64,000 bases of DNA, taken from NCBI GenBank assembly GCA_963920765.1, contig OY987245.1, positions 8,572,727 to 8,636,726 of the forward strand, in the 5' to 3' direction. Of this stretch, positions 2,175 to 64,000 are shown one piece after another. The notes under the pieces were generated by a model, which was not told where the DNA came from, made no database searches, and saw only the letters and a program-made list of their open reading frames with translations. The position numbers and the translations under genes are program-made. Position 1 is the stretch's first letter. Every line of letters starts with the position of its first letter. Origin of the DNA: Ulota crispa. Lineage: Eukaryota > Streptophyta > Bryopsida > Orthotrichales > Orthotrichaceae.

Positions 2175-2270
2175 TCGGCAGCTGCCCGGGAGTTCGGGCA
2201 GCTGCCTAAAAAGTTCGGGCAGCTGCCCAAAAGTTTGGGCAGCTGCCCAAAAGTTTGGGCAGCTGCCCAT
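2175..2270. repeat. Tandem array built on the palindrome GGGCAGCTGCCC
   Basis: Units of about 21 to 23 bases, such as AAAAGTTTGGGCAGCTGCCC, occur four to five times in a row. The 12-base core GGGCAGCTGCCC is its own reverse complement. The array is a GC-rich island in otherwise AT-rich DNA. An open frame from about 2134 covers it, but its residues simply follow the repeat. Confidence 0.85.
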
Positions 2271-15440: not shown

Positions 15441-16345
15441 GGGATCTATCAAGGTTCTGTAGCTTCCGATAGGTTGGGTTGCAAATTGCTCTCGTCAAAG
15501 TGTACGTCACGCAAAATTAGTATTTTTTGTGTCTTAGGATTGTAGCACTTGTAGGCTTTTTTTTCTTTGTCATAGCCTAAAAGAATAGTGGGAACAGCCT
15601 TAGGATCAAATTTCTGCCGTTTGTGATCCGGGATATGGCAATAAATTAGGCAGCCTATCACACGAAAGTGGGATAAATTGGGCTTTATTATGATAAAAGC
15701 CTGCTCTAGAGTACTAGTTTTGAGAGCCTTTGAGGGGAGCTTGTTTAGAAAGTAGTTTAGGGCTTTTGCTAATTTGTGCCAAAAAGACTTGGGAATCTTT
15801 GTACCTGTAACAATGCTGCAAATGCCCTCCAGGATTGTTCAATTCTTCCGCTTGGCAACGCCGCTTTGGTGCAGTGTGTGTGCTGGAGTAAGCTGGCGCG
15901 TGATGCTGTGCTTTGAACAATATGCCTAGAATGTAGGAGACATGTACTCACCGCTGCGATCAATTTGCAGAGCCTGGATTCAAAGGTGAGGTTGTTCCAC
16001 CAATTTTTGGAACTGCTTGGAGTCAAATGTCTAGGATTTTTCTGCCAGAAGGTAAATCCAAGATTTTTGGGAGAATTTGTCAACAAATGTGAGGATATAA
16101 CGATGTCCCTATTGAGATGTGATCAGCATAGGACCACAAAAGTCATTGTGGACTAGCTGCAATGGTGTGGTGGGGTTGGTGTGTCTGTTCTTGGGTATGG
16201 GTTCTCAGGGTAATTTGCCAACCATGCAAGAGTTGCAGGTGTGCTTGATGAGCGGAATATGGGGTAGGCCGATACCTAATTGTCATTGGGAGAGGCGGTA
16301 AAGACCTTGGTAATTTATATGACCAAGTCTATTTGTGCCACAAAT
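15441..16345 (-). pseudogene. Copia pol: integrase
   Basis: Read right to left, the minus strand gives LGHINYQGLYRLSQ, then CNSCMVGK (zinc-binding half-site). The catalytic core follows: VHNDFCGPM (first Asp), FVDKFSQKSWIYLL, IDRSGEYMS (second Asp) and HQSGVAKRKN. The C-terminal block is IGCLIYCHIPDHKRQKFD, GYDKEKKAYKCYNP and ILRDVHFDES. In HQSGVAKRKN the family's catalytic Glu (VAERKN) is replaced by Lys, a G-to-A change, at about 15850. I count about seven in-frame stops, including TGA where the family has Arg after KN. The enzyme would have inserted the DNA copy into the host genome; this copy is inactive. Confidence 0.92.
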
Positions 16346-16703
16346 TGATCGTGTTTGCAGGAGTGTGTTTAGGTGGAGGTGTAGGAACCGGGGAGGCAAC
16401 ATTTGAAGCAAGGGGTTGTGTAAATGGAGTTGTAGGGGCATATGCCAGGATTACTAAGCATGCGGTTGTGTTGATCTTGTAAAGATTGTTCTTGGATTCC
16501 CTTGTTTCTTGGAGGATCAGTTTACTAGGGCTAAAGGAGTAAAAAATCTGACCGTGAGTGGACTGGAATAAAATTCGAAATCTTATGTCAATAAGCTTGC
16601 CAACAGAAAGTAGGTTAGTTTGAACTCCAAGGACGTATGAAACATTGTGAATATGCTTTATTTTTCCAAAAGCCTGAGAGATGTGTACAATACCCTGTCG
16701 TGT
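16346..16703 (-). pseudogene. Copia pol: GAG-pre-integrase region
   Basis: The minus strand reads RQGIVHISQAFGKIKHIHNV, then YVLGVQTNLLSVGKL, the segment that follows the protease and precedes the zinc-binding integrase domain in copia Pol. It is separated from the protease (23164 on) by the second 3.2-kb unit and its nested third copy. Confidence 0.9.
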
Positions 16704-18273
16704 TGTGAGTTCCAAATTCAACACCAAAAATCTTGAATTTCTTTTTTGCTTTACTTAGCTTTGAAATTACATTAATATAAGTGGAATAGCCCTTTATGTT
16801 GATTTAGATCAGTTAGACCAAATGGTTAGTAGTACGCCATTTACCCTATTCCATTTGGTCAGTCATTAGGAGAGATTTAGTGAGATTTAGTAGTTTTTAG
16901 TTAGTTTGAGCAACAGTGCTACTAGGGGCTTAAGATTCCCTCCAAAAGTCCCCACTAACCTAATTAGAGATGGTTAATTCAGGATTGGCCACTAGGGGCT
17001 TGGGATCCCTTCCAAAAGTCCCCAGTAACATAATTAGAGAGGGTTAGTTTAGGAGTAGATTAGTTACGCCGTGGCAAATGGCCACATCACCAATTCACAA
17101 CCCAACAACTAACAACCACAACATTTGGTGTGTCTATACCTAAGGTTCCCAATGCCTTTTGCTTTTCAGAAAGCAAGATTCCAAGCAATCAACTCTACTA
17201 GACTACTAGTCAACTCTGGTCAAAGGAGGTTGACAAATGGCAGTATAATGCCACCAAAATTCATGGAAGAGTTTCTCAAGGATTTAAAACAGCCCCCAAG
17301 TTTTAAGTTGTTTTGATAGCGGCAAGGCCTTAAACAACTACATCCAACTTATTTCAACAATGAGTGCAATATTTAATTTCAAGATATTATCCATTTGAAG
17401 CCCAATTGATGGGAACAAGAAGTGTTTCTCGGCTCTCCCAACAACATTGGAAGACCTCAAGAAGTCAATTTCTCATTTTTGGATGAATTCCCAATTCTGG
17501 GATTTTCATCCATCCACTTCTAACCCTTCATTCAAGATTCCCGACGCTTTGCAGCTCAGAACTAGGAGCGTGAACAACCAAAACCAGCTATTTTGGGTCC
17601 AAGGAATCCAATGCCACTATCTATTTGTCATTTGGAGCTACACTCCAAAAGTTATGGCAAATTCATCCAGATTTCATCCATTTTGAGTTTTTCTTAGAGT
17701 TTAGGTAGATTTCAAGGAATCTATGGATCTCTTAGATAGAGGGCCGAGGGGTCCTCCCCCAAAAGTACAAAGGGAGGCTCACCTCCTCCCACACCATCAC
17801 TTTCATCATAGTTCTTTGATCTCTCATCACTTTCCTTTTGTTTAGATCTCTTTTTGGTCACCATCACTTGTATCATCTTCCTTGATCACCCCTTGTACTT
17901 CCTTCTCCTCTCATAGCAACCCCATCATTCCCTTGTTCTTGAATTCCCTTGTGTTCCTCCTTAGTAGAGCTATCATGCCTCACCATTAGTTAGAAAAGTG
18001 TCCCTACTTTGCCCCCCTTGTTTACCGGCCCGCTATCAAAAGCCCACCACTATTTGAACAGGTCTTCCTAGCAGTTATTCTGGAATCCTCTCAACTCAGT
18101 CTTAACTTGGCCAGCTCATTTGATTCCTAAATTAGCTCTCTAAGAAGCACTCAATTCATTGAATTCTTCTAACTTGAGGCCCCACTTTGCTTACAAAATT
18201 AGTGGACTAAGTGGCAAAAGCTGCCTTGAATTTCCCCATATTACGGCCTACATCCCCTGCACGCACAAGGCCT
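16704..18273 (+). mobile_element. Solo-LTR-like unit copy 2, left part
   Basis: Starts TGTGAGTTCCAAATTCAAC and follows copy 1 closely for about 1.1 kb. Shared landmarks include GGTTAGTAGTACGCCATTTA, CTTGGGATCCCTTCCAAAAG, CAAAGGAGGTTGACAAATGG and TCTATGGATCTC. It is interrupted at 18273 by copy 3 and resumes at 21474. The right end is at 23158. The flanks CGTGT (16699-16703) and CCTGC (23159-23163) would be the decayed 5-bp target duplication, with two mismatches. Confidence 0.75.
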
Positions 18274-21200
18274 TGTGAGTGCTCAAACCTCCCCCTTGAG
18301 AAGTAAGCGCAAGCACAATTGGATTCTAATCTTAGCTGGGAAATGAGCTAAGCGTGAAAAAATAGCAAGAATGTGGGTTTGGTTTGTAGATTTCCAAATA
18401 AAGATGCCTTCCAAGCAATGGATCTTTTCTAATGAACCTACAACATACAATGATGAGCAAAGAAATAATTGATTTGGTATGCCAAGCTTGGCCAATTGCA
18501 ATCAGAGCACAAGTAATTATACCTCATCAAGGGGCTTGACATACCCTTCAGTTGGATGGTGAACAGCCTCCATTCTCTCGTGCAAGTGCTGGATCAAGCG
18601 TACAATGATTCTACTCTAGGGACAAATAATCACAACACTCTAGTAGGTCGGTAGATCAACCCGTTGTAATGGACCGGTCTATGCTACTGCCTTGTGACAA
18701 ATAATCACAACATAAACCGGCTTTGATGACCAGGAATTGAGGATTATCCTAATCCTTTGGATTAGGCATGGATCTCGTCATGGATGTCTTTGGATACCTA
18801 AAGATATCTCCTTATTTGGTCAATAATGGAAATATGATGGGTTGTGGTTTCTCGTGTGCACTATGACGCAGCTTCTAACTTAAGCAAATCCAAAGATCTC
18901 TATGTGCTTTGGAACAATTGTTTAAATAGTTAGTAAAGCAAAGAAGTGGGTGAGCCCAATTAAGGGACCCAATTTCCCTTCCTTAAGTCAAAATACTCTG
19001 AAATTTTGTAAGTCGAACCTGCTAGCTTGGCAGAATGCAAGGCTCTAGAGTTCAAGGTCAAGGAGGGCTGAGGTTTGGCAAGGCCTAGGTATTGTAGGCC
19101 GGGTATTGGCGAGGGCTGGGTGTGAGGGGCTAGGGGGTCTAACGCCGGCGATTGCACTTCAAGGGAGACTGAGCTCTGGGTCAAAGAGAGACTGAGCTCT
19201 GAACCAAAGAGAACTAAGCTTTGGCTTGAGAGGCAAAGTGCCAACTTGGAAACTAGAGAGGCAGGGGCTAGACTTGGGAATTTGGGAGGAAGAGTGCCGG
19301 ACTTGGGAATTGAGAGGCGAAATGCCATATTTGGGAATTGAAATGCAGAGGCTAGACGTGGGAATTGAGAGGCAGAGGTTGGACTTGGGAATTGAGAGGC
19401 AGAGGCTGAATTTGGGAATTTGAGAGGGAGACTAAGCTGCTGGACTCAAGAGAGAGACTAAGCTGCTGGACTCAAGAGAGAGACTAAGCTACGGACTCAA
19501 GAGGCTGAATTGCTAAACTCAAAAGAACACTGAATTATGAACTTGAGAGAGAGAATAAGCTACTAGACTCAAGAGAGAGTGAGCTGCTGGACTCAAAGGG
19601 AGATTGAGCTATTGGACTTGAGAGATAGACTGAGTTGTGGACTTGAGAGAGACTAAGCTGTGAACTCAAGAGAGAAACTGAGTTGTTGAACTCAAGAGAG
19701 GCTGTGAGCGAGGCAGTGCCACTAGCTGAGGGAGTCTGTGAGCAAGGCTGGGCTTCAAGCTAGTCGAACCAAAGAGCAGGGTGGCTTCTCAAAGAGTTGC
19801 TTCAAGAATCGAGACAATTGACCAGGCTAAAGCTGAGCTGCAAGGATTCCAAAAGAACTGCTAGGAGGCCTTGGGCTGGCGCATAAGTTCTAGTAATGGC
19901 ATTGGTAAGCTAATCCTTAGTGAAAGGGGTCTATTCTAACTAGTGGCTCTAATAACTAACTAAGCAGCTTGAATTATAACTAGGACTTCTAGGAAGTATG
20001 GAAAAGCGGCATTGCCAATTGTAATCCAACTTCCTAGGGGTTAGTATGACCAAAGATAAGAAAAACTAAGCTCTAACTAAGTTCAACGGGAGGGGCTCCA
20101 CCCAAGGTAAAGCACAAGAGTACTTGGAACAAGGGAAGCTAAGGACTTAGTGATGGTGACCAAGAGAGCTCTCAACAAGGGGAAGTGATCTAAACATGGG
20201 AAAACGGTTACAAGTGATGAAAGGGATGGACCCGGGTTAGTATGACCAAATACAAGGAAAACTATGCTCTAACTAAGTTCAACGGGAGGGGCTCCACCCA
20301 AGGTAAAGCACAAGAGTACTTGGAACAAGGAAAGCTAAGGACTTAGTGATGGTGACCAAGAGAGCTCTCAACAAGGGGAAGTGATCTAAACATGGGAAAA
20401 TGGTTACAAGTGATGAAAGGGATGGACCCTAGTGATGGTAAGTGATGAAAAAGATGACTTGGGAGGAGGTGGGCCTCCCTTTGTACTTTTGGGGGAGGAC
20501 CCCTCGGCCCTCTATCTAGGAGATCCATAGATCCCTTGAAATCTACCTAGACTTTAAGAAAAACTCAAAATGGATGAAATCTGGATGAATTTGCCATAAC
20601 TTTTGGAGCCTAGCTCCAAATAACAAATAGACGGTGGCATTGGATTCCTTGGACCCAAAATAGCCGGTTCTAGTTGTTCACACTTCCAATTCCAAGCTAC
20701 AAAGCATTGGGAAACTTGAATGAAGGGTTAGAGGTGGATTAAAAAAAACCCAGAATTGGGAATTCATCCAAAAATGAGAAATTGACTTCCCGCGGTCTTC
20801 CAATGTTGTTGGGAGAGCCAGGAAACACTCCTTGCTTCCGTCAATTGGGCTCCAAATGGATAATATCTTGAAATTAGATGTCTCGCGCGTTCTTGAAATA
20901 AGCTAGATGTGGTTGTTTGAGGCCTTGCTGCTATCAAAACGACTTGAAACTTGGGGGTTGTTGTAAATCCTTGAAAAACTCTTCTATGAATTTTGGTGGC
21001 ATTTTACTGCCATTTGTCAACCTCCTTTGACTGGGGTTGACTGAGAGCCTAGCAGAGTTGACTGCTTGGAATCACGCTCTCTGAAAAGCGGAAGGTCTTG
21101 GGAACTTTAAGTATAGATGCACCAAATGTTGTTGTCGATAGTTGTTGGGTTGTAATTGAGGATGTGGCCTTCAGCCATGGCATAATTGAGCAATCTTAAA

Positions 21201-50924: not shown

Positions 50925-51035
50925 GAATGACAAGGGTACGAGATGTACACTTGAGGAGAAGGGTACATGATGTACCTTTGATGACAAGTGTACAGGATGC
51001 ACATTTGATGACAAGTGTAAGAGATGTACAATATC
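50925..51035. repeat. ~27-bp tandem repeat, four units
   Basis: Units resemble TTGATGACAAGTGTAC followed by AGATGTACA and recur about every 27 bases. It lies in the presumed LTR of the gypsy remnant. Minus-strand residues such as TLVIKCASC arise from the repeat. Confidence 0.75.
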
Positions 51036-51290
51036 GTCTCAAAAGTTTTTGTCACCTTGTTTCTCTTGATCAATCAACTTTGCAACATATGGAACATAAT
51101 CAATATTTTGTTGATTTGAATCATACAAACTTGATTCTTATGCAATCCAAACATGCATACCAAATTTTGATTCCTTAAATTCAAAATTCCATTTTTAGTG
51201 AGTTATTTTGTTATAAATTCAAGGTTTTACAAGAAAATAGTTTGAAAAATATCGGTGACAAATTTTTGAGATTTGATTGCACGGATATGT

Positions 51291-51633
51291 AGAAAACATC
51301 CATATGCACATCTTCCATGCTAAAAAAGACCCCCTCAAGTAACAAAATAATTATCTAGTTTATTTTCAATGTGACTTGTGATATGCCCAAATTTTGCAGA
51401 ATAAATATTTCTTTGTTATAATCAAATTTTGTTATTTGGTTCATATATTATGACAAAACTTGTACATTTGAACATGATATTACATTTTCTTGGTGAAAAG
51501 CTAGCTAAAAAATAAAATACATATTTTACAAAATTTGAGCATATCACAAGTCACATTGAAAAAAAACTGGATAATTTTTTTGTTAATTGAGGGGGTCTTT
51601 TTTAGCATGGAAAATGTGCATATGGAAGTTTTC
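51291..51633. mobile_element. Foldback element (~343 bp)
   Basis: The left arm from 51291 (AACATCCATATGCACATCTT, GCTAAAAAAGACCCCCTCAA, CAATGTGACTTGTGATATG) is complementary to the right arm ending near 51633. Arms are roughly 110 bases. Further inner matches surround the loop. Confidence 0.8.
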
Positions 51634-51637
51634 CATA

Positions 51638-52430
51638 TATGCCATATTTAACTACTTTTGGACTATGGCATGTCCAGAAATAATAAATACCAAAAATCCC
51701 CCAATGCAACAGATCATAAGATTTCCGATGGTTAGAGCATACTAAAGTCTTGTACACTTGTTCCTTGGTCGTGCAACAACATACACAGCCATATTGGGGG
51801 ATATTTCCATTGTAAATTGCAAAATCCAATGTCGAGAAATGAAACATTGGATGTGTACTATATAAATTTTGGTTGTATAGGGAGATCCCCCAACATTATC
51901 CCACTAGACATCTCCCAATGTATCCAAGGAGACCCAAAGGAAATTGGTGGATGTATAAAGCTGCTATTACTTGGCTACTCCTTTTGGCATTTTAGGAGAC
52001 TGTGGTGATGGAAATTTGCTCAGCTTAGAATACACAAATAATAACATGATTGAAAAATTATACAGAGCCTGCAACCTCCCAAATAAGAAAACAATGAAGA
52101 ACTCACTATCATTAGAAGAAATTAAGAATGACTGCATTGCTACGGAAAAAACCTTGTTGAAGGACCACATGCATTTGTACATCACAATTAAACTTCAATA
52201 TCAGGAGATAGGCATAAGTGAAAGGTCTCAACACGACATACAACAACCACACAGAGATGACAAAGGGTGCAATTAGTGATTAACAAGATAGTTTTATTGG
52301 CTTTCTCAATTTGAGTGTCCACTGAACAAGTCCTTCAAGGAATTGAAATAAAATGAAATCTAAATTAACCTTGATGATCAATGTACAAAGAACAGTGGGC
52401 CACAATTCCAGAAGCTAGAAAGTAGAGAAA
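51638..52430. other. Left edge of the palindrome-rich compartment; weak open frame
   Basis: Partial copies of the 18-bp palindrome appear at about 51690 (ATCCCCCAAT), 51795 (ATTGGGGGAT) and 51877 (AGGGAGATCCCCCAAC). A plus frame at 51971-52276 (101 codons, TTG start) is rich in Asn, Lys and Glu (LSLEEIKNDCIATEKTLL) and looks protein-like, but I cannot assign it. Confidence 0.4.
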
Positions 52431-52632
52431 CATTGGGGGATCCCCCAATGTAAGTGAATTCCTGACACCACGACCTAGGTAATCATTGGGGGATCCCTCG
52501 ACGACAGTGAGACCTTGACACCCTGACTTGGGAATCATTGGGAGATCCCTGATGAAAGTGAAATTCTATCACCAAAACCTAGGTAATCATTGGAGGATCC
52601 TCGGTTGAAAATGAAATAGTAAACCCAAGTGC
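52431..52632. repeat. 52-bp tandem array, one palindrome per unit
   Basis: Four units start at 52431, 52484, 52536 and 52588. Each opens with a form of CATTGGGGGATCCC and ends with a form of ACCTAGGTAAT. The first unit carries the perfect palindrome ATTGGGGGATCCCCCAAT. This array probably shows the original repeat from which the scattered copies at 56-57 kb and 60-61 kb decayed. Confidence 0.85.
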
Positions 52633-52636
52633 CCGA

Positions 52637-55290
52637 TCAGGGGTCTACCCTGTTGGACCTATTTAATTTCACTAACATTGCTTCATGGCATTTCTTAGAA
52701 ATTGTCCGGGTCTTTGGATTCACAAGCTTAGACCAATTGGAATATACTACACAACTTGCATCCACCCAAGTGGGAGAACTATCTTTAACCACCCATTTTC
52801 CGAACCAGCAGTTACAATATTGTAGTTGAAAACTACTTTCAAAGTTATCTAGTTGCCAATATTGAAGTAGCAACTTCCCGTTATTCTCATCTCTCTCTAC
52901 TCTGCAGACAATGGATAGAGCTCTTCCAAGCCATACAGCACACAACACGGGGTTCTCTAGTCTGAGAAGAACCCAGGAGCCAGGTCGGATATCGAGCCAA
53001 GGATTAAAGCACTGTTGTGGTGCTTCATCTGCAAGGTCGCAATAAGGTTCCGGCTCATCTTCTTCAGGGATGATATCCACGGGATTAACCGTTCTTCCCA
53101 GGCAAGAGATATTGTCAAGAGTCAGCCTCCAATCATGTTTTGGCCAGAAGCCTTCTACTAGTTCAGATGGATTGTCAGGTAGTGGCCTCTTAAGCTCAGT
53201 TAGCATGTGATTCCAATATTCTACATATGGTCCAAATGCAGTAGCAAAGCCCTCACATCTTGATATACCATTCTTCCAAGAATCAATATACTTCTCCACT
53301 CCTACTAACATGAAACTCTTATTTAGTGTAGCTTTGCGTGCCAATTCCATACTCTTGTCTTGGTTTCCTATAGCCTTAGGGATTTTGCTGCCCCACATGT
53401 GCTTGAATGGAACAAGCTTTGGGTTCCCCGGTGGAAGCATAGGCCTGCTGTTGCTATCCCGCTTCCAAAGGCAAGCAGAAGGCTTATCAGCTAGAAGCCA
53501 ATGCAAATCAACAGTTGACTTCTTGTATCTCATAACCACCACCCCCTTATTGTCTACGTAGAACCGGAAGAGGTGCATTTCACCCAACCCAATTAATCTG
53601 GAGGATCCATTGCTTATGTAACCCTTTACATACAATTTGAAGTCTCCAACCTCTTGTACAATCTTCGGCATGAATGCCACTTCTTGCGACTGCATGAAGG
53701 CTTGCATCAAATCAACAAGTACAAAAGTGTTTTTGCTCTTCAAAGCTTTAGAGAGATGATTGAAGTAAGCATCAATGTCCTCATGAGTGTGTCCGACCAA
53801 CAGAAATCCAACTTGGATTTCTTTGAAGACACCTTGAGCAGTGAGGACAAGAATGCCATCAAATACTGGTTCTTGTTGTCCTTGGCAGAATTGTCAAGCT
53901 GAAGGTACAAACTTCTAGGAAATGGTGCACTTCCTAAGCAAGCTCTCGGGTCAGTCAAATTCAAACTATTGATACACCTAGACTTTCTATGGAGAAGTGC
54001 ATCAAACAATGGATTCGCCAGCAAATATGGAAAAGGTTGCTTGTTTCACATATTGAAGGTCCCTCCAGTCAGCAAATTAATCTAGCTAATGAGGAAATAG
54101 TAAAGTTTGAATCACTTGGCCAACAAAAAGGAGCATAATGAGTGTAAGCACCATTACCGTGACCATGTGCTACCATACCAGTTACGCTAATGGGAAGCTG
54201 CCCAAGACCCTGCATGCTTTTTGTTGTCACTCGCATTCTTGGAATAGCGGTTTTTGCTGTGTCCATCTTGTCGTGAATCACACAAAGTATTTCCCTTGGG
54301 TTCCATTTGGACTCTTCATGCCAAGAATAATATAGCCTACGGCACAAATTTTGGTGATTGAGATGTTCAGTACGCTATTTCATGAACTCCACGTACTCCG
54401 GACTCCCTTTTGCAATTTTTAAAAGGACCTGCTAAAGCTGGTCGCAAGTACTACACTTTGCAAACGTGCTTCCAACAGGCTTAATAGTAACATTGTTGAA
54501 GAGTTCCTTCTTAATTTGACTGGTAGTAGACTGGCTCACAGGAGGAAGACCATAATCTGAGTTTAGCTGCAAAACCAAATAGACATGAATTTAGCATTGA
54601 AATCAAATGGAACAAAGCAAAACGTAAAACAGAAGGTACAGTAAAAAAGTTGCACATTAGCATTATAAAGGATAAGAAGTCACCCAAATATTCTATCGGG
54701 GACCCCCCAATGACTCACCACATAGCCTTTAGAGGAAAAACAAACAGACGGATGAACTATTGAGGGATCCCCAATGACTCGCAACAACGGGAGAACGCGG
54801 AACTACCTCATTGGCATCAGCACAAACGCGCTTCCAGTTATTCCCAACTGGGAGATATTTCAAAGTATCCATTATTCCATTACCGATGCTCTGCATTTGA
54901 TGGGGCATTTGATCGGCATTTTTGTCAATGATCGCTTTCATGGTTCCCGTGACCAGAATAGTTGCAACCCTGGGACGTTTAATCCATTTATTTCCATGGG
55001 TCCCAGATATATTGTCGGCCTTATACAATTTGATGTAATTATGATACGTTGACTTTGAAATTCCGTGGATTTTATACCACACCACTGTGGACACCTCTGC
55101 TCCATTGAGTGTGATGAACTTGCAATTTCTTATGCCATCAATGTTATGAATCTGCCCACTAGCAGCAATCCTGTATTCTCGGCGGTCTTCAAATGACCTG
55201 AGATAAAATTTCTGTCTGACCTTCAATAATGATTCTTGAAGGAAAAATTGATAGCACCGACTTTTGCAGCTTTTTAGGGAGCTGACATTC
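52637..55290 (-). pseudogene. DUF7869-family gene relic (DDE-transposase-like context), at least two exons
   Basis: The exon from about 55290 to 54807 carries a CKSRCYQFFL start and an R-QKFYLRSFEDRREYR block. The intron at 54806-54567 is removed in frame. The next exon runs to 52637 with FAKCSTCDQL, ILCVIHDKMDTAKTAIPRM, GMVAHGHGNGAYTHYAPF, RSLYLQLDNSAKDNKNQY, GFLLVGHTHEDIDAYF and an uninterrupted ~387-codon C-terminal part. LQLDN...GHTHEDID is the signature of DUF7869, a family common in streptophyte and animal repeats whose acidic residues suggest a DDE-type nuclease fold (inference). TAG at 54432 and 54375, TGA at 54069, and frameshifts near 54050 and 53840 break it. The long intact C-terminus argues for recent decay. 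Confidence 0.8.
54567..54806 (-). other. Intron of the DUF7869 gene, holding two palindromes
   Basis: Minus-strand borders are GAG|GTAGTT and TTTGCAG|CTAAAC; the frame joins without loss. Palindrome variants lie at 54694 (TATCGGGGACCCCCCAATG) and 54759 (ATTGAGGGATCCCCAATG). Confidence 0.78.
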
Positions 55291-55382
55291 CGAATTTGTT
55301 CTACCTAAGTTTTAATAACATACTAGGAGTCTTTGTTACAGAGACTTGGCTTCCACACAATAAAATGATATGGCGCTTTCAA

Positions 55383-56041
55383 TCATCCACCGAGATATGC
55401 TAGGAGATCTTGAACAATTGGTATAGCTGAGAAATGTTCCAATGTCTCTAGTAGGGAATGTCCATTAGGAAACCAACATGAAGATACTGGCCACCAAGAG
55501 TGAGTCAAAATAGCATCCTTATTTCCCAAAAAAACATTGAGGACAGTCACTCCCACGACCTCCTCACCTAAACTCCCCCTTGGAAATGATTGTCCTGCAT
55601 GCAGCAATTTATTCTGATTGAAGACAAAAATTGTCCCTGTACATCTTTCCAATGGACTTCAAGGCCTACCCACTTCTTTGGATGAAAAAAGGAGATGGGT
55701 CTATCGGGGGATCCCCCAATGATTTCACAACACCAAATACCCGCCACAATACAATTTGGTTGACAACATCCCCTAGCGTCTTCAAATCCCTTTGACAAGG
55801 GTCAACAAGCAAAGAACAAGCAGCCGCCACTATAGGTAGGGTTGGATAAGAATGAACATCCAGGACTGCTACATAATGACCACCCTAAGCCATTGACCCA
55901 TAGGACAAGCTTCCATAACACAATCCTCATCAACTTCCCCAAATCCAACAATGAAGAGGTTGATGGCATCTCTATTACAAATTGATTCCAAATTGTCATT
56001 GGAATTCTAAGATTCCTACTGGAAGGGCGAGACAACTCCAA
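55383..56041 (-). pseudogene. Further minus-strand coding fragments upstream of DUF7869 domain
   Basis: One frame at about 55900-55680 reads GHYVAVLDVHSYPTLPIVAA, later CQRDLKTLGDVVNQIVLWRV, and runs straight through a palindrome (SLGDPPIDP). Another at 55652-55383 reads CTGTIFVFNQNKLLHAGQSF, later WWPVSSCWFPNGHSLLETL. Both look like real protein but need frameshifts to join, and I do not recognise the domain. They lie on the same strand as the DUF7869 exons and could be its 5' exons or a neighbouring gene. Confidence 0.45.
55703..55720. repeat. Palindrome inside an open frame
   Basis: ATCGGGGGATCCCCCAAT, one base from the perfect palindrome. On the minus strand it is read as SLGDPPID within the fragment above, without a stop or frame change. 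Confidence 0.75.
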
Positions 56042-56263
56042 TGGACACTACAACATGTACGATTGATTTGTAGAAGGAATCCATGTTGCCTGCCACAATT
56101 TAGATTTGTGCTGTAATAAGGGTGACTCCAAAATCAAGAATTATAGCCTGCTTAGTACACAATAGTTGTAAATACATTGTTATCCAAAGGCCAAACAACA
56201 TCTTCAGGATTGTAGAGAACATCAACAATAGTGGATTCATTAAGTCAAGAACCACCAACCTCT

Positions 56264-56918
56264 ATCCGGGGATCCCCCGATACCAAATTCCCAAAATCAC
56301 ATATATAAGAATCAACTACAACGCAATGTAAGGAAGCATTACTTTGCAACATGATCAAATACCAGCATGTATCAAGGGATCCCCCGATGAATTGATTCAT
56401 ATGATTGAGCAAGACATATGTCTATCAGAGATCCTCCAATGACAAGATTCCCAAATTTGGGCAAGACATAGGCTTGGAGCAATGGCCTTGGTGCAGTGAT
56501 GCGCAACAATGAGCAAGGCCCATTGGGGGATCCCTGATGCAATGTTGCCCATAAATGAGCAATGCAACGGGGAATCCACCGAAGCTATACGTTTAATAAA
56601 AGTTGAAAGACCTACATCTATTAAGGAATCCCCTAATGAAGCATGGCAAACAAATGAGGTAGACAGATCCTAGAGTAGCCAATGCAGTGTATTAAGAATG
56701 ACGTATCGGGAGATCCCTCGATGAAGTGGTGTCCATAACTAACAATGACCTATTGGGGGATCCCCCAATGCAATTGCTACTTATATGTAGGAAGACCATG
56801 ATTTATCGGGGATCCCCCAATGCAACTAAAGAATCCACCAATTTATAAAGTGATTTGTGAAAGTCCCACATATTCACAAAATTTCATCTGAGCAATTCGT
56901 ATTGGGGGATCCTCCAAT
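56264..56918. repeat. Cluster of ~10 palindrome copies
   Basis: Copies start at 56264, 56371, 56424, 56522, 56566 (poor), 56620, 56705, 56752 (perfect ATTGGGGGATCCCCCAAT), 56815 and 56901. Steps are about 45-63 bases or close to twice that. Spacer sequences between copies do not align by eye, whereas the palindromes remain recognisable. Confidence 0.85.
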
Positions 56919-57485
56919 GTAGTCAATATTGCAAAGTAGAACAACTATATGAAGGTCTTATCAATTTACTAGAGTGTACGGCATAGAAACACCAAGTACC
57001 GTCCCATATCTACTGTACAATAGTCTATACCTTGATGAATTAACATTTTACAGTGAACACGTATGCAAATACAAGACTCATAGCAAGTTTGTGAACCCTC
57101 ATTAGTCCTTACAAAAGAGGACAGTATCCAATGACACACGCAGCTGATATTTACTTATCCTAAAGATATATGCAAATTTCGACACGTGTTGAAGGATTGT
57201 CATTGATTTCTATAATTGCATTCATTGACACTTCAAAATCAAAATCCCTCGCACAATGTGCGTGCCCATTACATCTTAGTGTGTGAGGACCACACCAACT
57301 ACCAATTTAATGCACCCAACAAAGAGAAAACTGACTGTGTCAGCCCCTCTGCAAACCAATAGTTGATCTACTACATCCAACAATAACAGGGGGGCAGTGT
57401 ACTTAATCATCTACTGCACAGTACTGAATATCCAGTGTTAGTTGAACTAAAATATTTGAATCCGACAAGAGGTAAAATGTTACCT
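56919..57485. other. Spacer without palindromes or recognised gene
   Basis: No domain or repeat recognised. It ends at a good minus-strand donor site (TTTGCAG|GTAACA) of the next exon. Confidence 0.45.
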
Positions 57486-57640
57486 GCAAATATCCAATGA
57501 CGATTGTGGATGGCGTCGATGCCTTGCTCCACGTCAGTCTTCATTGCAATCCACAGAGCAACTGTGCGCAAAAGCGCCGTGCCAATTTTGAATGCAAATT
57601 GGGATGCACCTCCTTGTCTTTTTTGTGCCTACCTAAACAA
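57486..57640 (-). pseudogene. Probable minus-strand exon, unknown product
   Basis: The minus frame reads KRQGGASQFAFKIGTALLRT, then VALWIAMKTDVEQGIDAIHN, then RHWIFA, ending at the donor TTTGCAG|GTAACATT. An acceptor-like TTGTTTAG precedes it. Composition is protein-like (alternating hydrophobic and charged residues). Its position suggests a 5' exon of the minus-strand gene that includes the DUF7869 domain. No domain recognised. Confidence 0.45.
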
Positions 57641-57727
57641 TTCTAGACTACAAAACTACAAAGTGAACACTAAGTTTACTAATTCTTTGGCCTGACAATG
57701 TAACAAATCCCTTAGCCACAATAAAGT

Positions 57728-57913
57728 CTACAGGCTGCATGCAACACAACAATGCAAAGCGCTATCAATGACGCACAGAAAGCAAGCAAAGAGCAATAGC
57801 AATTGAGGGCGCACTGCACTATGGGAGTCAGATTCTTGAATTTGGACCCGGGTTGAGAATCTCGCTAGAATTTTCTTGAGGAAGTTCTTGATTTTCAAAT
57901 TCCATCTCGCCAT
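57728..57913 (-). pseudogene. Possible first exon of the minus-strand gene
   Basis: Starts ATG at 57911-57913: MARWNLKIKNFLKKILARFS. It reads basic at first, then hydrophobic (LLLLFACFLCVIDSALHCC), which could be a membrane or signal segment or simply untranslated sequence. The 62-codon frame ends at TAG. Support is position and an ATG only. Confidence 0.25.
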
Positions 57914-60247
57914 TCAAATTTCAAATTTGAAATTTGTCTTGCTACTCTTGCGGCTGTTGCTATCCATGATTGATGAACCACGGTCAGGTGTATTTTACTA
58001 TACGATAACTTTTAGTAAGTGACTAGCCATTCATTATTCTTAGCCAACTAAGGAACAATTAAAATATTTTGTAGGAACCAGTTGGTCCACTTGATTTAAT
58101 CACCGTTCATGGTATACATTCACAATAATTCATTCATTGTATCAGAACTTAAATGTCCAGAGATCCTTGATAATATTTACTGTAAACCATGTCAATTGGA
58201 AGTCAATGATATACATGATTATTTTATAAAACACAATTAAAATTGATTAGTTTAATATGCTTTGCCATAAACACCAGAATCACATAATTCTTTGCCAAAA
58301 TCATACTTAAAGGAGATTAATTTTTCATCATATGGGTTAGTGGGTGAACACTACCTTTTTTAGTATAATTCCACAAGTTTCAGCCCATTGTAATCGTTTT
58401 TGCTATTCTAATTCAATAAAATCCCCAAATCCCCTTAATTAAAAATGTGTAGGATAAAGGGGGTCACCATTCATTTCATGTCAATTAATTCCACAAAAAT
58501 TCCACAATGTCTCTTATGATACAATTAAACATAAGGTGGTAATGTCCACATCTTAAATGCACTCCTTCATGTGAACAAAAATGGGTTAATTGTCCTTTCA
58601 TCTAGTTCTTATAATCTAGAAATTCATGTACACTTAGTGAGTGTTAATAGAAGCCAAAGCTCCATGATTTGATTATGTCCATTGATGGAGTCCTACTCGG
58701 CCGTGGTAATGTGAAAGGATGCTATCATAACAATCATTATGATTGTACACCCACCCAAAACTAGAGTTCTAGTTAACAACCATGATGAGGTGGACAAGTG
58801 GATGCACAATGATGGCGCTCCCAACCAGGAACACCAGCCCGTTCCCAGAAAAGGAATGTCAATTGTCATTTCCCCCCAGATTGGCTTCTAAGCGTCATTC
58901 TCTCCCCCTAATGTTCTTGCAAAAGCGCTGCGGGAGTGTTCAATCTGTAAGCATTGAGCATTGTTTGCGAGATTTGTGTGAGGTTTTGTTGCGGCGCATG
59001 AAAGCATGTTTAGGTTGCAAGAGCAATCCTAGCGTTTGGAGTTGTTTGTGGAATTGTAGAGGCAATCTAGAGTTGTAGTGGTGTTTCTCTCTGCAGATTT
59101 TGTTGTTTGTGTGAGTAATTTGTTGCTAGAGCATTATTGTAATTTTAGAGGAGCAATTGAAGAAGTGTAGCTTTATTTTGGTAATTCATTGCTAGAGCAT
59201 CAATCTGAGTTAAAATCAGCAAGTGTAGAGCTGTAATTTTGTTAGAACCCCGAGGTTTGCTTTAGTGCGGTGTTGTTGTGGAGGCAATTTTGGAAGGCAA
59301 CATGCTGTCTGTCAAGGCAAGTTCTACAAAGGCTTCGCAACAAAGCTGACATTAGCAACACATTCTTCCAAGGTGCGTAGACGCGCGGTGTGGCAAGGAG
59401 AGGCAATTTTCCCTCCATTTCAACTTGGAATTTTGCAAGGATTTTTGCGACAACATTGGTTAGTAACTTTGTGTGCTTCTCAATTCCCAATTAGTAATGC
59501 AATTAGTTTGTTTTGGTTTCCGTGATGGCGCATGCATGATTTCCTTGGCGATGTTACTTGAGTCTGCACAAGATTGAGGAAATGTGGTAGACTCTGCTAT
59601 GTCCATCACGTTATAATCTAGCAAAGAATAGTCTTGCAAATCTTGTCAAAGTAGAAAACAAGTGTTAAGTATGTAATCTCTACAATTTCTAGTCTGAAGT
59701 ACCAGGTTCTCCTCAAGAAATTGTGGGGTATATTCTAGGGCATTAGTTCTGCTCCATTGAAAGAAAGTAACTGTAAAATTCAGCTAATGAAGTTGTATGG
59801 ATGATCCTAACTCAGAGAACGGAGCAAATAATCATGCAACTTCAACATCTTAAGTGATTTATTAGTTACATTTCCATAGTTGGATATGATATTTTGTAAT
59901 AAGACTTCTAGACATCTGTTCTCCTCAATTAAAAGATAGGAAGTTGATATTCTATAGGTGTTTACAATTTTGCAAGATTGAATTTGTCCCACAAAAATCG
60001 AAGTGATTCTTTCAACTTGCAGCAAGAATTTCAATTTCTTTCATTGTAATGGCATCAATGGTAATTACGGCAAAGGAGAATGCTCCATTATGGAATCAGT
60101 GGTAAGCAAACCATAACTTGTAACAAACAATTCCTGAATGCAGGTTGTTTCAGCTATGTACACTATATGGACATGTGGTAAGGTTATGCGCGTAGGAATC
60201 AAAAAAATTCATGGCAAGGCAAAGGGCACGTTATCCCATTTCCCCCT
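57914..60247. other. Divergent intergenic region; weak plus-strand coding segment near 58770-58960
   Basis: Between the minus and plus gene relics. The plus strand at about 58770 reads HDEVDKWMHNDGAPNQEHQP, then VPRKGMSIVISPQIGF, stop, then NVLAKALRECSICKH. This may be a decayed exon. The stretch 59090-59540 is T/G-rich with short frames on both strands. No palindromes occur between 56919 and 60247. Confidence 0.35.
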
Positions 60248-60902
60248 ATTGGGGGATCCCCTAATATAATTATCCTTGTTCTGTAGTATGTCAGTTTCTT
60301 TCCTTGGAGAATATTGGGTAAAATCTCTATTGGGGGATCCCTCGATAACTCCCATGTGGTTTAGAAGTTTTTGTGAGGATTATCCAGGGATCCTCCAATA
60401 AGAATATCCAAATATAATTAGACCACACAGCATAATGTGTATTGGGGGATCCTCGATAACAAAACCCTAATTTAGTTAGACCATACACCAAAAACTCTAT
60501 CCGGGGATCCCTCAATATTCTGCACACAGAAATCATATCCTCCATATCTTTATTGGGGGATCCCCGAATACTCTAGACACAGCCTCAATAGGACATGAGA
60601 TTACTGAATATTAGGATCAGCTCGCGCAATCCATCAGGGGATCCCTCAATGATTTCGCCTTGAATTATAGTTCATAGTATTGGGGGATCCCTGATAATGG
60701 TTCCCTCATTTAGTTAGTCTCTAAGTCAAATACTCTATTGGGGGATCCCTCGATGTTATGTGCCTTGATCATACAATTGCTGGGGAACCTTGCTATGATA
60801 ATTGTTACAGTCATACATAGTCATCATAGTCTATTGGGGGATCCCTCAATAAACTCTTATAGATTTGATCATTCTCTGCAGTTCATTGAGGGATCCCCCA
60901 AT
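60248..60902. repeat. Cluster of 11 palindrome copies
   Basis: Copies start at 60248, 60329, 60382, 60441, 60499, 60552, 60633, 60679, 60737, 60833 and 60885. Common forms are ATTGGGGGATCCCTCGAT and ATTGGGGGATCCCTCAAT. Usual step is 46-59 bases. The cluster ends just before the acceptor (ATTATTCAG at about 60949) of the first clear exon of the plus-strand gene, so it probably lies in an intron. Confidence 0.87.
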
Positions 60903-62252
60903 ATCTTTAATCAAGGAGTGTTCTAATACTTGCTAATTGTATTATTCAGCGCAAATCTAAACCAAAAAGCTCCGAAGGAGCTCTTGCCAAAAAAATTATT
61001 TGGCTTCATCAACCACTGGGTTCCTGTATTTCATTACAAAGGAAACCACCCGCCAGTGGCTATCTTCCACTGCCTGACAAAGGTTACTGCATGGGGATTG
61101 GAGTGGAAGCCGGTGCCTGAGAAGGTGACTCTGATACTTCCACTCCTGATAAACGCAAATAGAAAGAATCAAACCTTCGGGCTAAATGTCTTGGAGATAC
61201 AGGGACTGAATGATCAATCCGCGCTTCTTATTGTCTATGAAAAGATCCCAAAATCAAAGGCAAGTCTAACCTACGGCTTGATCCTGAACTACAAGTCGTT
61301 CAATACAAACCTTTGCAAGACAATGCTAGACGCAGGCTTCTTAATCAATATTGACAATGGCCTCAAATTCTCTCCCAGGGAAATGAAGGAGTAATGGGAT
61401 ATGATTGTAGAGGCTAGCCGATCTGAGGTACCACATTCTGATGCAGTTTCTCCCTCAACGCAAACGAAGCCACCGTAGAAGAAGAGCAGGAAAAGGAAGT
61501 CCTTGGCCGCTGCTCCTGACAATGTTGCGACGATCTCACCTGCTAAGAAGAAACTAAAAGTTGAGCGTGCTCTTCACAATTACGTGAAAATGGAGGAGGG
61601 GGAAATTTCAAAACTCTCTCCATCAGAAATGAAGCAAATGAAAGTGGTTTATGCTAAGCATTTCAGTGGACTCTATAAATGGGAGAAGAAACCGTTTGCA
61701 AACAAAAGCGGTAAACGTCTGTGCGTTGATTTTGATCAGCTGCATAAGGAGGTCCTGAGTACTTGTGTATATAGAGGCATTCAGGAGGATTGGCTGAAGG
61801 GCCTCATAAGTCTTGTGCAAATTGTTGGTGATTATCACTCCAAATAGAGATATATAACGGTGCTTCCCCTCAAATGTGGTCCATATGGTCTTGAGAAGTT
61901 GGTCACGCCCTTTGATTCGGCTCCAAAGAAGTCAAAAATCACAGCAACTACAAACTATTTCATTATTGGTGGGCAGCACACTATCGCAGCTCACAAGACT
62001 CTCAGATCCAATAATGAGATTCCCCATAATGATTTGGAAGCTGCTTCCACATTTAACATTATTCCCGTGTGGGCTCCTAAGAGTAACTGGATTATGTTAC
62101 TCCACCTATCGAAGTTGTTGAATCAAAATATTGCCGGACTCCTATAGGAGTAGTGTTTCACCAAGCAGCTGCTAACCGCAAGGATGAAGTGGAGAGATAT
62201 GAGAAGCCCGCCCCTCGCTATTGGTGGACGAAGACACTCTGAAGAGTACTTG

Positions 62253-62370
62253 GTAATCTCTGCACCCTTCTAAAATGAGTTTCTTTATTGCCTATCAAGG
62301 GATCCCTCTATAGAGAGTGTAACATAATTCCTCACTGTCATAACCCAAATTGCTGTGTTGTATTTTGCAG
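62253..62370 (+). other. Intron of the plus-strand gene, with one palindrome
   Basis: GTAATC donor and TATTTTGCAG acceptor; both sides are phase 0 (EYL, then KFYPCMVII). A palindrome variant, ATCAAGGGATCCCTCTAT, lies at 62294-62311. Confidence 0.72.
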
Positions 62371-63723
62371 AAGTTCTACCCTTGCATGGTTATTATATTC
62401 ACAAGATCCAAGGGTACAAACCTCACTAGCAGACTTCAAATTCCCCTAATGTTTTTAGAGGATGACGCCGACATCAAGCAATGGATCCATATCAAAGACC
62501 AGTACATGAAAGGATTTTATCTAATGGATCTGGAAAAGTTGATCTCTCTAGAAATGCAAAGCGCAAACCACTGACGGAGTTTGACTTTAAAACCTTGTAT
62601 GGACTCCAATGTGAGGACTTTAACTACCTTATGTGTCAAGTAGAGGCAAAGGAAGTCACCGTGAAAAGCTCAAAGGGGAAGATGAAGGGCGTAGGAAATG
62701 GAATCGTTTTACTGAAGGATGCTGGGTCGCGGATTAGGTACGACAAAGCTATGAAGAACAAGCTCATGAATTATTACAAGGACAAGCCATTGTTTAGCAA
62801 GAGCGCAGAATATATACCAAATCTTGATGAAAGTGGGATGAATTGCCGCAAGATTAAGCATATTGGAGAGGGACGTGAAACTCTAGACAGATAGAGCGCT
62901 TGATACCAATGCTAGGAAAGAGTGGCTAAAAGGTTGCCTAGAAACTCTTAACAAGACGAACGACCCAGATGAGTGCCCTGCCTAAGTTATCAAAATGTGG
63001 AAGGCAAAAGTCAATGTTTGTGATGCTTCCACTATGGAAGATGAGACGATAGCTTTTGTTAGGCATTACATGTGCAGAATCATGGATGACAAAGTCTAGA
63101 ATATAAGTGCCATCCTTGCCAATCCAATTATAGCTGATTGGCGGAGATCCAAAAAACATCACATGTACTTTTGCTTCATGTTTGAGAAAGTAGGCAAAGG
63201 TGTCCGTGCAAAGCATCTGGAGGATTGGAAATTATGGAAGCTCTTTGACGCACTAGAAAAAGGGCGTTCCAAGAGTGGCACAATTTTTATTACTTGATCT
63301 CCAGCAATGATTCTGACTGATGTACATGGAGTGACATTGGTGCACAACCATTTGGACACACAGGCTTAAGAAGCAAAATTGAGGGTGTGGTCCATGCACG
63401 TATTCCAGTATTACCCTTCATCAAAGGACAACTTCCCACGTCTTGCTATGGGAAAAAGATTAACTGTGCATATCATCTTCTTGTTTGGGTTGGACACGAG
63501 CAAGACAGAGGAGGAATCCTTTGCCACCTACTTCATGAGAAATAAATGTTTTATGCCTTTTCACGTTGTTGACAATATGGAGGATGTAAACAACCATTGG
63601 AGGCGCAAAAATCTTCCTTGGCTAAGGGTGAAAACTCCAACGACAATATTTCTTCAACACATTGTTGACAACATGGTCATAGTTAATATCAACAGTGGTC
63701 TGTAGTTCACTCATCTTGGAATG

Positions 63724-63820
63724 GTATGTCACCTTCTCCTAGTTTTTTGAGCAAAGCATAGCTGTTCAAAGGGAATGTATGAAACAAAGTATATTAATAG
63801 CTGTGTTGTCAATAATTTAG
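63724..63820 (+). other. Second intron of the plus-strand gene
   Basis: GTATGT donor directly after the codon for M at 63721, and TCAATAATTTAG acceptor. The exon after it (FERGKVLKVVHS) is in phase 0 and stays protein-like to the window edge. Confidence 0.6.
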
Positions 63821-64000
63821 TTTGAGCGGGGGAAGGTGCTCAAGGTGGTCCATTCCTAGGAAGAGAAAACCCCAGCGGAATCAACTGCTTGAGAAATTTG
63901 GGACTTCATTATGGTGGAGTCGGATCCTCTAGAAGACGCTTTTTCTGGTAATCCTACTGTTAACATGGGTGTTGTTGCGGCAAACACAGAAATTAGTCAA

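What the first reader, a model, noticed from the sequence alone, without database searches (positions are those of the whole stretch)
51690..62311. A dispersed 18-bp palindrome, ATTGGGGGATCCCCCAAT, in ~29 copies confined to one 10-kb compartment
Two copies are perfect palindromes and the rest differ by one to a few bases. The centre GGATCC and flanking G/C runs persist while the spacers have lost alignment. A 52-bp tandem array (52431-52632) suggests the copies descend from a satellite in which only the palindrome was preserved. Retention of a symmetrical core can mean binding by a dimeric protein, a cruciform role, or mobility of the palindrome itself. The neighbouring genes encode a DDE-like and a ParB-like protein, either of which could be the binder (inference).
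Basis: partly seen in the sequence, partly recalled or inferred. Interest (0 to 1): 0.8.

Follow-up and report, generated by a model that had tools for sequence, protein, structure and literature searches.

The report
Palindromic address sites in giant transposons
The repeated 18-letter palindrome belongs to a family of large jumping genes in a eukaryotic genome, and looks like a landing site for a paired DNA-binding protein that the jumping gene itself probably makes, with branches of the family using their own versions of the site.

Summary
The palindrome is real: 16 sites at up to 3 mismatches in the window against 0.03 expected, and 29 of the 31 sites at up to 5 mismatches start in 51.6-62.4 kb. 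The "compartment" is a DNA transposon, window 51640 to 68165, with 26-bp terminal inverted repeats and two divergent genes: a DUF7869 protein (gene1) and a large protein with a weakly ParB-like segment (gene2). Twenty of 20 paired-repeat intervals found hold both genes. Of 106 distinct sites listed by two genome searches (capped lists), 104 lie within 25 kb of gene2 or of this family's gene1. One clade uses ATYGTGGGATCCCACRAT, changed in both half-sites, with the same terminal repeats; it is one clade of the gene2 tree (100/99). Half-sites vary nearly independently; hairpin and mobility readings are not supported. Against one sister copy the anchors (AT...GATC...AT) are constrained while the outer arms differ at 48% against 17% in spacers. 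Best reading: binding sites of a two-fold symmetric, probably element-encoded protein, most like VANC anti-silencing targets in Arabidopsis VANDAL transposons. Binding, the binder's identity and anti-silencing are inferred, not shown.

The parts
51640..64000 (.). DNA transposon, left part; continues to 68165 (C4:8624366-8640891, 16.5 kb)
   Evidence: 26-bp terminal inverted repeats at both ends; ends aligned in homologs with unrelated flanks
51640..51665 (+). left terminal inverted repeat TGCCATATTTAACTACTTTTGGACTA; the right copy lies at 68140-68165, past the window
   Evidence: genome 127 + 140 matches at up to 3 mismatches against 0 and 0 for the reversed pattern
52640..56006 (-). gene1: multi-exon DUF7869 protein (putative transposase), frames decayed; exon limits approximate
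   Evidence: PF25273 E 1.2e-20, 8.7e-10 and 3.7e-5 in three ORFs, the last below Pfam's cut-off; exons matched in C7, C1a, C1b, C4b
60927..64000 (+). gene2: large divergent accessory protein, matched exons continue to about 67284; in-frame stop in this copy
   Evidence: tblastn conservation; 36 genome matches of its first segment
61848..62144 (+). ParB/Srx-like segment of gene2 (GQH box), weak similarity only
   Evidence: homolog from C7 hits a PHROG ParB-like family at E 0.019; the window copy itself has no PHROG hit; alignment A1
51793..51894 (+). palindromes at 51793 and 51877
52431..52617 (+). 52/53-bp tandem array with 4 palindromes, just 3' of gene1
54694..54776 (+). two off-register palindromes between gene1 exons
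55703..55720 (+). palindrome, one mismatch, inside or at the edge of a gene1 exon
56264..56918 (+). cluster of 8 palindromes 5' of gene1
60248..60902 (+). cluster of 11 palindromes directly 5' of gene2
62294..62311 (+). palindrome between gene2 exons; the sister copy has the perfect form at this place

Best explanation
The palindromes are recognition sites for a two-fold symmetric (homodimeric) DNA-binding protein, scattered through the non-coding parts of a family of two-gene DNA transposons (17 of 20 paired intervals are 16-33 kb; three are 47-59 kb, perhaps through inserts or mispairing). Shown: the sites, the element, a clade-specific change of both half-sites with unchanged terminal repeats, constraint on the anchors and fast change of the outer arms in one sister pair. 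Inferred: the binder is the element's own accessory protein (gene2). Most likely role: it coats its own element at tens of sites and keeps it open to transcription against host silencing, as VANC proteins do on VANDAL elements; the rapid turnover of sites and protein would then reflect an arms race and separation from sister elements.
For: Dyad-symmetric column profile with nearly independent half-sites. The clade with ATYGTGGGATCCCACRAT changes positions 5 and 14 together; its 7 loci (labelled by eye) are a single clade of the 25-row gene2 tree (100/99, 0 of 500 shuffles). 171 sites of that type genome-wide against 8 for the reversed pattern; all 50 distinct sites in the capped list lie within 25 kb of gene2. 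Five of the 20 paired intervals carry this type and share the terminal repeat, so the change is not in end recognition. 25 of 25 gene2 5' regions examined hold at least two sites. 19 of 19 DUF7869 loci that are not among the family's matches hold none to the window's motif in the 1.6 kb examined. 31 of 33 sites lie outside exons as mapped by tblastn, p 3e-6. Anchors differ in 11/152 and outer arms in 55/114 cells against 1155/6705 in spacers. Gene2 is less conserved than gene1 in 28 of 28 gene2 matches with a gene1 partner within 45 kb; 7 had no partner. VANC21 motifs are likewise in introns, intergenic and terminal non-coding regions, often in tandem repeats, and differ between related families (PMC5735166, Results read).
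Against: No binding, expression or methylation data. Gene2 shows no proven DNA-binding domain: the ParB-like call rests on E 0.019 in one of two copies tested; no Pfam ParB hit; the Protein Data Bank profile search gave only an acetyltransferase at E 0.085 and a lipoprotein at E 0.42. Gene1 and gene2 travel together, so gene1 could be the binder; some gene1 copies without a detected gene2 also keep palindromes (e.g. C3:16874767). A weak within-element pairing excess exists (589 against 562 +- 12, p 0.014). VANC21's motif is not palindromic. Of 20 family gene1 matches of 400 aa or more, 19 have a stop inside and the window's frame also breaks, so present activity is not shown. The fast arms were measured in one pair of copies only. 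Two listed sites lie near neither gene.
Confidence: 0.5

Rival explanations
1. The palindromes are internal binding sites of the transposase (gene1), needed to fold a long element and bring its ends together, like the repeated TnpA sites of En/Spm or the Mu enhancer (both recalled).
For: Gene1 and the sites go together (43 of 56 and 48 of 50 listed sites within 25 kb of family gene1), also in some copies where gene2 is not detected. Spacings are quantised and weakly phased near 10.6 bp.
Against: Sites are spread over the whole element and densest 5' of both genes, not at the ends. The site changed between clades while the terminal repeats did not.
Confidence: 0.2
2. The sites work like parS: a ParB-like gene2 protein loads at them and spreads, to hold, compact or segregate the element.
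For: Palindromic sites plus a weakly ParB-like segment; ParB-like accessory proteins are reported in giant algal transposons (PMC12477816, passages).
Against: The similarity is weak; no ParB DNA-binding helix-turn-helix was found in the pieces scanned; an integrated transposon has no evident need for partition; about 30 scattered sites are unlike a compact parS cluster (recalled).
Confidence: 0.12
3. The sites are targets of a host factor (repressor or methylation machinery), and their fast arms are mutation hot spots from cytosine methylation.
For: Arm changes are 96 of 107 transitions against 750 of 1155 in spacers; CpG-touched columns change most.
Against: Outer arms are fast outside CpG too (48/132 against 1010/6371). 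On a rough three-way polarisation changes run both ways (28 to A/T, 19 to G/C). The symmetric clade-wide switch follows the element's own gene2 tree.
Confidence: 0.1
4. Cruciform or RNA hairpin function, or mobile palindromic mini-elements.
For: Perfect symmetry of the consensus; weak within-element pairing excess (p 0.014).
Against: Half-sites otherwise independent; no wobble bias; 33 of 33 aligned sites have a counterpart at the same place in the sister copy.
Confidence: 0.04

Closest known systems
VANDAL transposons and their VANC anti-silencing proteins (Arabidopsis; PMC5735166, Results read; PMC10398659, abstract and outline seen)
   Same: Short element-specific motifs in introns, intergenic and terminal non-coding regions; partly in tandem repeats; motif differs between related subfamilies; a less conserved accessory gene beside a more conserved (putative) transposase gene.
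   Different: VANC21's motif is 9 bp, not palindromic, arrayed in one orientation; VANDALs are Mutator-like (recalled); VANC carries DUF1985 and DUF287. Here the motif is an 18-bp dyad, the putative transposase is DUF7869 and the accessory pieces scanned have no VANC domain hit. Anti-silencing not tested here.
Giant algal transposons with ParB-like accessory proteins (Sola1-1_Ec32; PMC12477816, passages read)
   Same: A 21.5-kb element with an accessory gene on the strand opposite the transposase gene and a ParB-like domain; such proteins are proposed there to bind their own element.
   Different: That protein has a DNA methyltransferase domain; here a weak NIF-phosphatase-like segment (E 0.056, below cut-off). 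The transposase is Sola-1, not DUF7869. No palindromic target is mentioned in the passages read.
DUF7869 (PF25273)
   Same: Gene1 matches at E 1.2e-20.
   Different: No paper in the library names this domain. Many other DUF7869 copies in this genome are distant (26-39% identity), and the 19 examined lack palindromes in 1.6 kb.

Membership tests
DNA transposon with terminal inverted repeats | terminal inverted repeats at both ends | tested here: met
   26-bp repeats; 20 of 20 paired intervals of 10-60 kb, from the 100 listed of 267 matches, hold gene1 and gene2
DNA transposon with terminal inverted repeats | target site duplication | tested here: inconclusive
   flanks of 4 copies read at both ends; at most a shared AT, which may belong to the repeat; copies are old
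DNA transposon with terminal inverted repeats | encodes a transposase | tested here: inconclusive
   DUF7869 is met, but that DUF7869 is a transposase was not tested
VANDAL/VANC system | element-specific motif concentrated in non-coding DNA | tested here: met
   31 of 33 sites outside exons; 104 of 106 listed sites near the family's genes
VANDAL/VANC system | motif changes between subfamilies with the accessory gene | tested here: met
   tree
VANDAL/VANC system | VANC protein domains (DUF1985, DUF287) | tested here: not met
   no such hit in the gene1 and gene2 pieces scanned; whole proteins were not scanned
VANDAL/VANC system | protein binds the motif and removes DNA methylation | not testable with these tools
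   needs EMSA, ChIP and bisulfite data
ParB-parS | ParB fold in the binder | tested here: inconclusive
   PHROG ParB-like E 0.019 in one of two copies; no Pfam ParB hit; no useful Protein Data Bank hit
ParB-parS | palindromic sites | tested here: met
Hairpin or cruciform element | paired changes within sites | tested here: not met
   observed close to expected at all nine pairs (173 sites; a mismatch cap on sites works slightly against pairing); weak excess p 0.014 in the anchor-selected set; no wobble bias
Mobile palindromic mini-element | presence/absence polymorphism with empty sites | tested here: not met
   33 of 33 aligned sites have a counterpart in the one sister copy compared

The most novel reading that the evidence does not exclude
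A eukaryotic transposon family carries its own ParB-like site-and-spreading system: a gene2 dimer recognises clade-specific 18-bp dyads strewn through the element and spreads to keep it unsilenced, with the arm bases, which set the clade's specificity, under accelerated evolution in an arms race with the host or with sister elements.
Probability: 0.15. Interest if true: 0.85.

Novelty: new variant of a known kind. Interest (0 to 1): 0.62.

Why it matters
If true, element-specific self-addressing, known from VANDAL elements in Arabidopsis, would also exist in an unrelated transposon type, with a palindromic code. The code can be read from sequence: half-sites, a clade switch and constant terminal repeats separate "address" from "end recognition". 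It also gives a natural series of site/protein pairs for testing how a DNA-binding specificity changes without losing tens of sites at once.

Tried and rejected
Cruciform or RNA hairpin: rejected, with the weak contrary signal stated. Mobility of the palindrome: rejected. Simple CpG decay as the cause of fast arms: not enough, since outer arms are fast outside CpG; a three-copy polarisation with L025 is unreliable because L025 aligns badly in places. Satellite origin: plausible for the 52.4-kb array, not shown for the rest. Helical phasing of sites: suggestive, but homologous loci are counted more than once. Protein Data Bank: nothing for gene1's 418-aa ORF at E up to 1; only chance-like hits for the ParB-like segment. 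Other weak Pfam hits of gene2 pieces, all below cut-off: NIF 0.056, DUF7468 0.02, DUF6551 0.19. Host identity was not settled: the land-plant marker search did not complete, and 9 of 10 other window ORFs had no Pfam hit at E up to 0.01. Papers: none with the palindrome letters, none naming DUF7869, none with all five giant-bryophyte-transposon terms; of searches only listings were seen, apart from PMC12477816, and nothing listed fitted by title or abstract start.

Full report
Observation. The palindrome ATTGGGGGATCCCCCAAT occurs 16 times at up to 3 mismatches in the window against 0.03 expected, and 31 times at up to 5 mismatches, 29 of them starting between 51.6 and 62.4 kb. The window lies in a 275-Mb genome of 157 contigs; genome-wide there are 436 sites at up to 3 mismatches against 36 for the reversed pattern. 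Random places come within 25 kb of a gene2 match in 0.6% and of any listed DUF7869 match in 2.3% of cases. The two exceptions are C9:12500770 and C1:11524743; the second lies 65 bp from a terminal-repeat match.

The element. Comparison with copies on C7, C1 (two) and C11 shows homology starting at window 51631-51640 in all four, with unrelated flanks. The right ends of three of them and of the window copy end in the inverted form of the same sequence. The terminal repeat TGCCATATTTAACTACTTYTRGACTA has 127 + 140 matches at up to 3 mismatches and none for the reversed control. Among the 100 listed repeat matches, 20 neighbouring plus/minus pairs 10-60 kb apart were found; each of the 20 intervals holds a gene2 match and a DUF7869 match. 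Seventeen are 16-33 kb; three are 47-59 kb and may hold inserts or be mispaired. Of the same-family places, 21 of 35 gene2 places lie in these intervals, and the rest near unpaired or no listed repeats. A target site duplication could not be settled.

The genes. Gene1 (minus strand, about 52640-56006) matches DUF7869 in three ORFs, one of them below Pfam's cut-off; its exons are matched in the other copies. In the list, matches fall into a family 45-84% identical to the window's and, apart from small pieces, a distant rest at 26-39%. Gene2 (plus strand, 60927 to about 67284) has 36 matches of its first segment in the genome. It has a GQH-box segment like ParB/Srx domains: the C7 copy reaches a ParB-like PHROG at E 0.019, the window copy does not. 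It also has a segment weakly like NIF phosphatases (E 0.056). These are leads, not identifications. In the window the frames of both genes are broken, and 19 of 20 family gene1 matches of 400 aa or more have a stop inside.

The sites across the family. In 25 of 25 stretches 5' of gene2 that I held (20 fetched, 5 from longer regions) there are at least two sites at up to 5 mismatches to the window's palindrome. In stretches 3' of 20 other DUF7869 genes, the one locus that one search puts in the gene1 family has two sites and the other 19 none. Seven of the 25 gene2 loci, labelled by eye, use another dyad, ATYGTGGGATCCCACRAT and kin, in which position 5 and its partner 14 have both changed. The genome has 171 such sites at up to 2 mismatches against 8 for the reversed pattern, and all 50 distinct sites in its capped list are within 25 kb of gene2. 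These seven form one clade of the gene2 tree (100/99; 1 change against 6.3 in shuffles). A third form, ATCCGGGGATCCCCGGAT, has 85 sites against 2; of 50 distinct listed, 46 lie near family genes, and the other 4 lie together at C4:2305622-2316901, next to a terminal-repeat match. Five of the 20 paired intervals carry the second type and are bounded by the same repeat (which by design finds only repeats within 3 mismatches).

Symmetry. In 173 sites from six regions the number of complementary pairs at each of the nine positions is close to what independent half-sites give; the mismatch cap on sites works slightly against pairing there. In 201 sites chosen by their anchors alone from 26 loci, pairing is far above a genome-wide reshuffle of right halves (589 against 516 +- 13) but only slightly above a reshuffle within each locus (562 +- 12, p 0.014). 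So symmetry is mostly a property of the clade's recognition rule and not of the single site. G-T and A-C mismatches are equally common on both gene sides (104 v 115; 44 v 47), so RNA pairing is not visibly selected. This is what a homodimer site predicts.

Evolution. Window and C11 sister copy: of 36 sites found in the window element, 33 lie in the aligned part, and all 33 have a counterpart at the same place, some of them decayed, so the palindromes are not themselves mobile on this time scale. Thirty-one of 33 lie outside the exons, which make up 44% of the aligned element (p 3e-6). In the 19 of 33 sites that are in register, ungapped, non-coding and well flanked, anchors (1, 2, 8-11, 17, 18) differ in 11 of 152 cells, outer arms (3-5, 14-16) in 55 of 114 and inner arms (6, 7, 12, 13) in 18 of 76 (not different from spacers), against 1155 of 6705 in spacers; none of 2000 random spacer sets reaches the arm-anchor contrast. 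With the less strictly chosen non-coding sites anchors are 18/247 and outer arms 78/184. Arm changes are mostly transitions (96 of 107 against 750 of 1155), and outer arms are also fast outside CpG (48/132 against 1010/6371). Whether this is hypermutation, conversion between sites or selection is open, and it rests on one pair of copies.

Mechanism. The best reading is a self-address: a symmetric protein, probably gene2, coats the element at tens of non-coding sites. Gene2 is less conserved than gene1 in 28 of 28 gene2 matches that have a family gene1 match within 45 kb (27 elements; 7 further matches had no partner), although the compared segments are not equivalent. The nearest described system is VANC on VANDAL elements, whose motifs sit in introns, intergenic and terminal non-coding regions, often in tandem repeats, and differ between families (PMC5735166, Results read; PMC10398659, abstract seen). 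A ParB-like accessory protein is described in a 21.5-kb brown-algal transposon, and such proteins are proposed to bind their own element (PMC12477816, passages). Anti-silencing, binding and the binder's identity are inferred here.

Verdict. The novelty is a palindromic, clade-specific address code in a DUF7869 transposon family with constant ends and fast-changing arms.

Noticed in passing
window 51025-51291 and 68166-68433 (L005 4166-4433): The element is flanked by inverted copies of a 268-bp sequence at 92% identity; a foldback (51285-51640) lies between the left copy and the element. Perhaps insertion into a hairpin element.
   Followed up: partly
G000:C11 (6.3 Mb): 31 of the 135 DUF7869 places and 10 of the 35 gene2 places entered lie on this small contig, about 2% of the genome; perhaps a sex or other repeat-rich chromosome.
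   Followed up: no
window 51640-68165 and related loci: Distances between neighbouring palindromes are quantised (25, 53, 81, 95-97, 106-107), with none between 26 and 41.
   Followed up: partly
G000:C4:2305622-2316901: Four listed sites of the third palindrome form beside a terminal-repeat match but without a listed gene1 or gene2 match: perhaps a deleted or non-autonomous copy.
   Followed up: no
window 2177-2269: Tandem repeat of 20 bp holding another palindrome, GGCAGCTGCC.
   Followed up: no
window 20038-20429: Two 196-bp tandem copies at 96% match.
   Followed up: no
window 16329-16727: Weak match to the retrotransposon Pol_BBD domain, below Pfam's cut-off.
   Followed up: no
G000:C6:288986 and C6:354832; C10:628702 and C10:833456: Pairs of DUF7869 copies with identical scores in opposite orientation on one contig: recent duplicates or an inverted duplication.
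   Followed up: no
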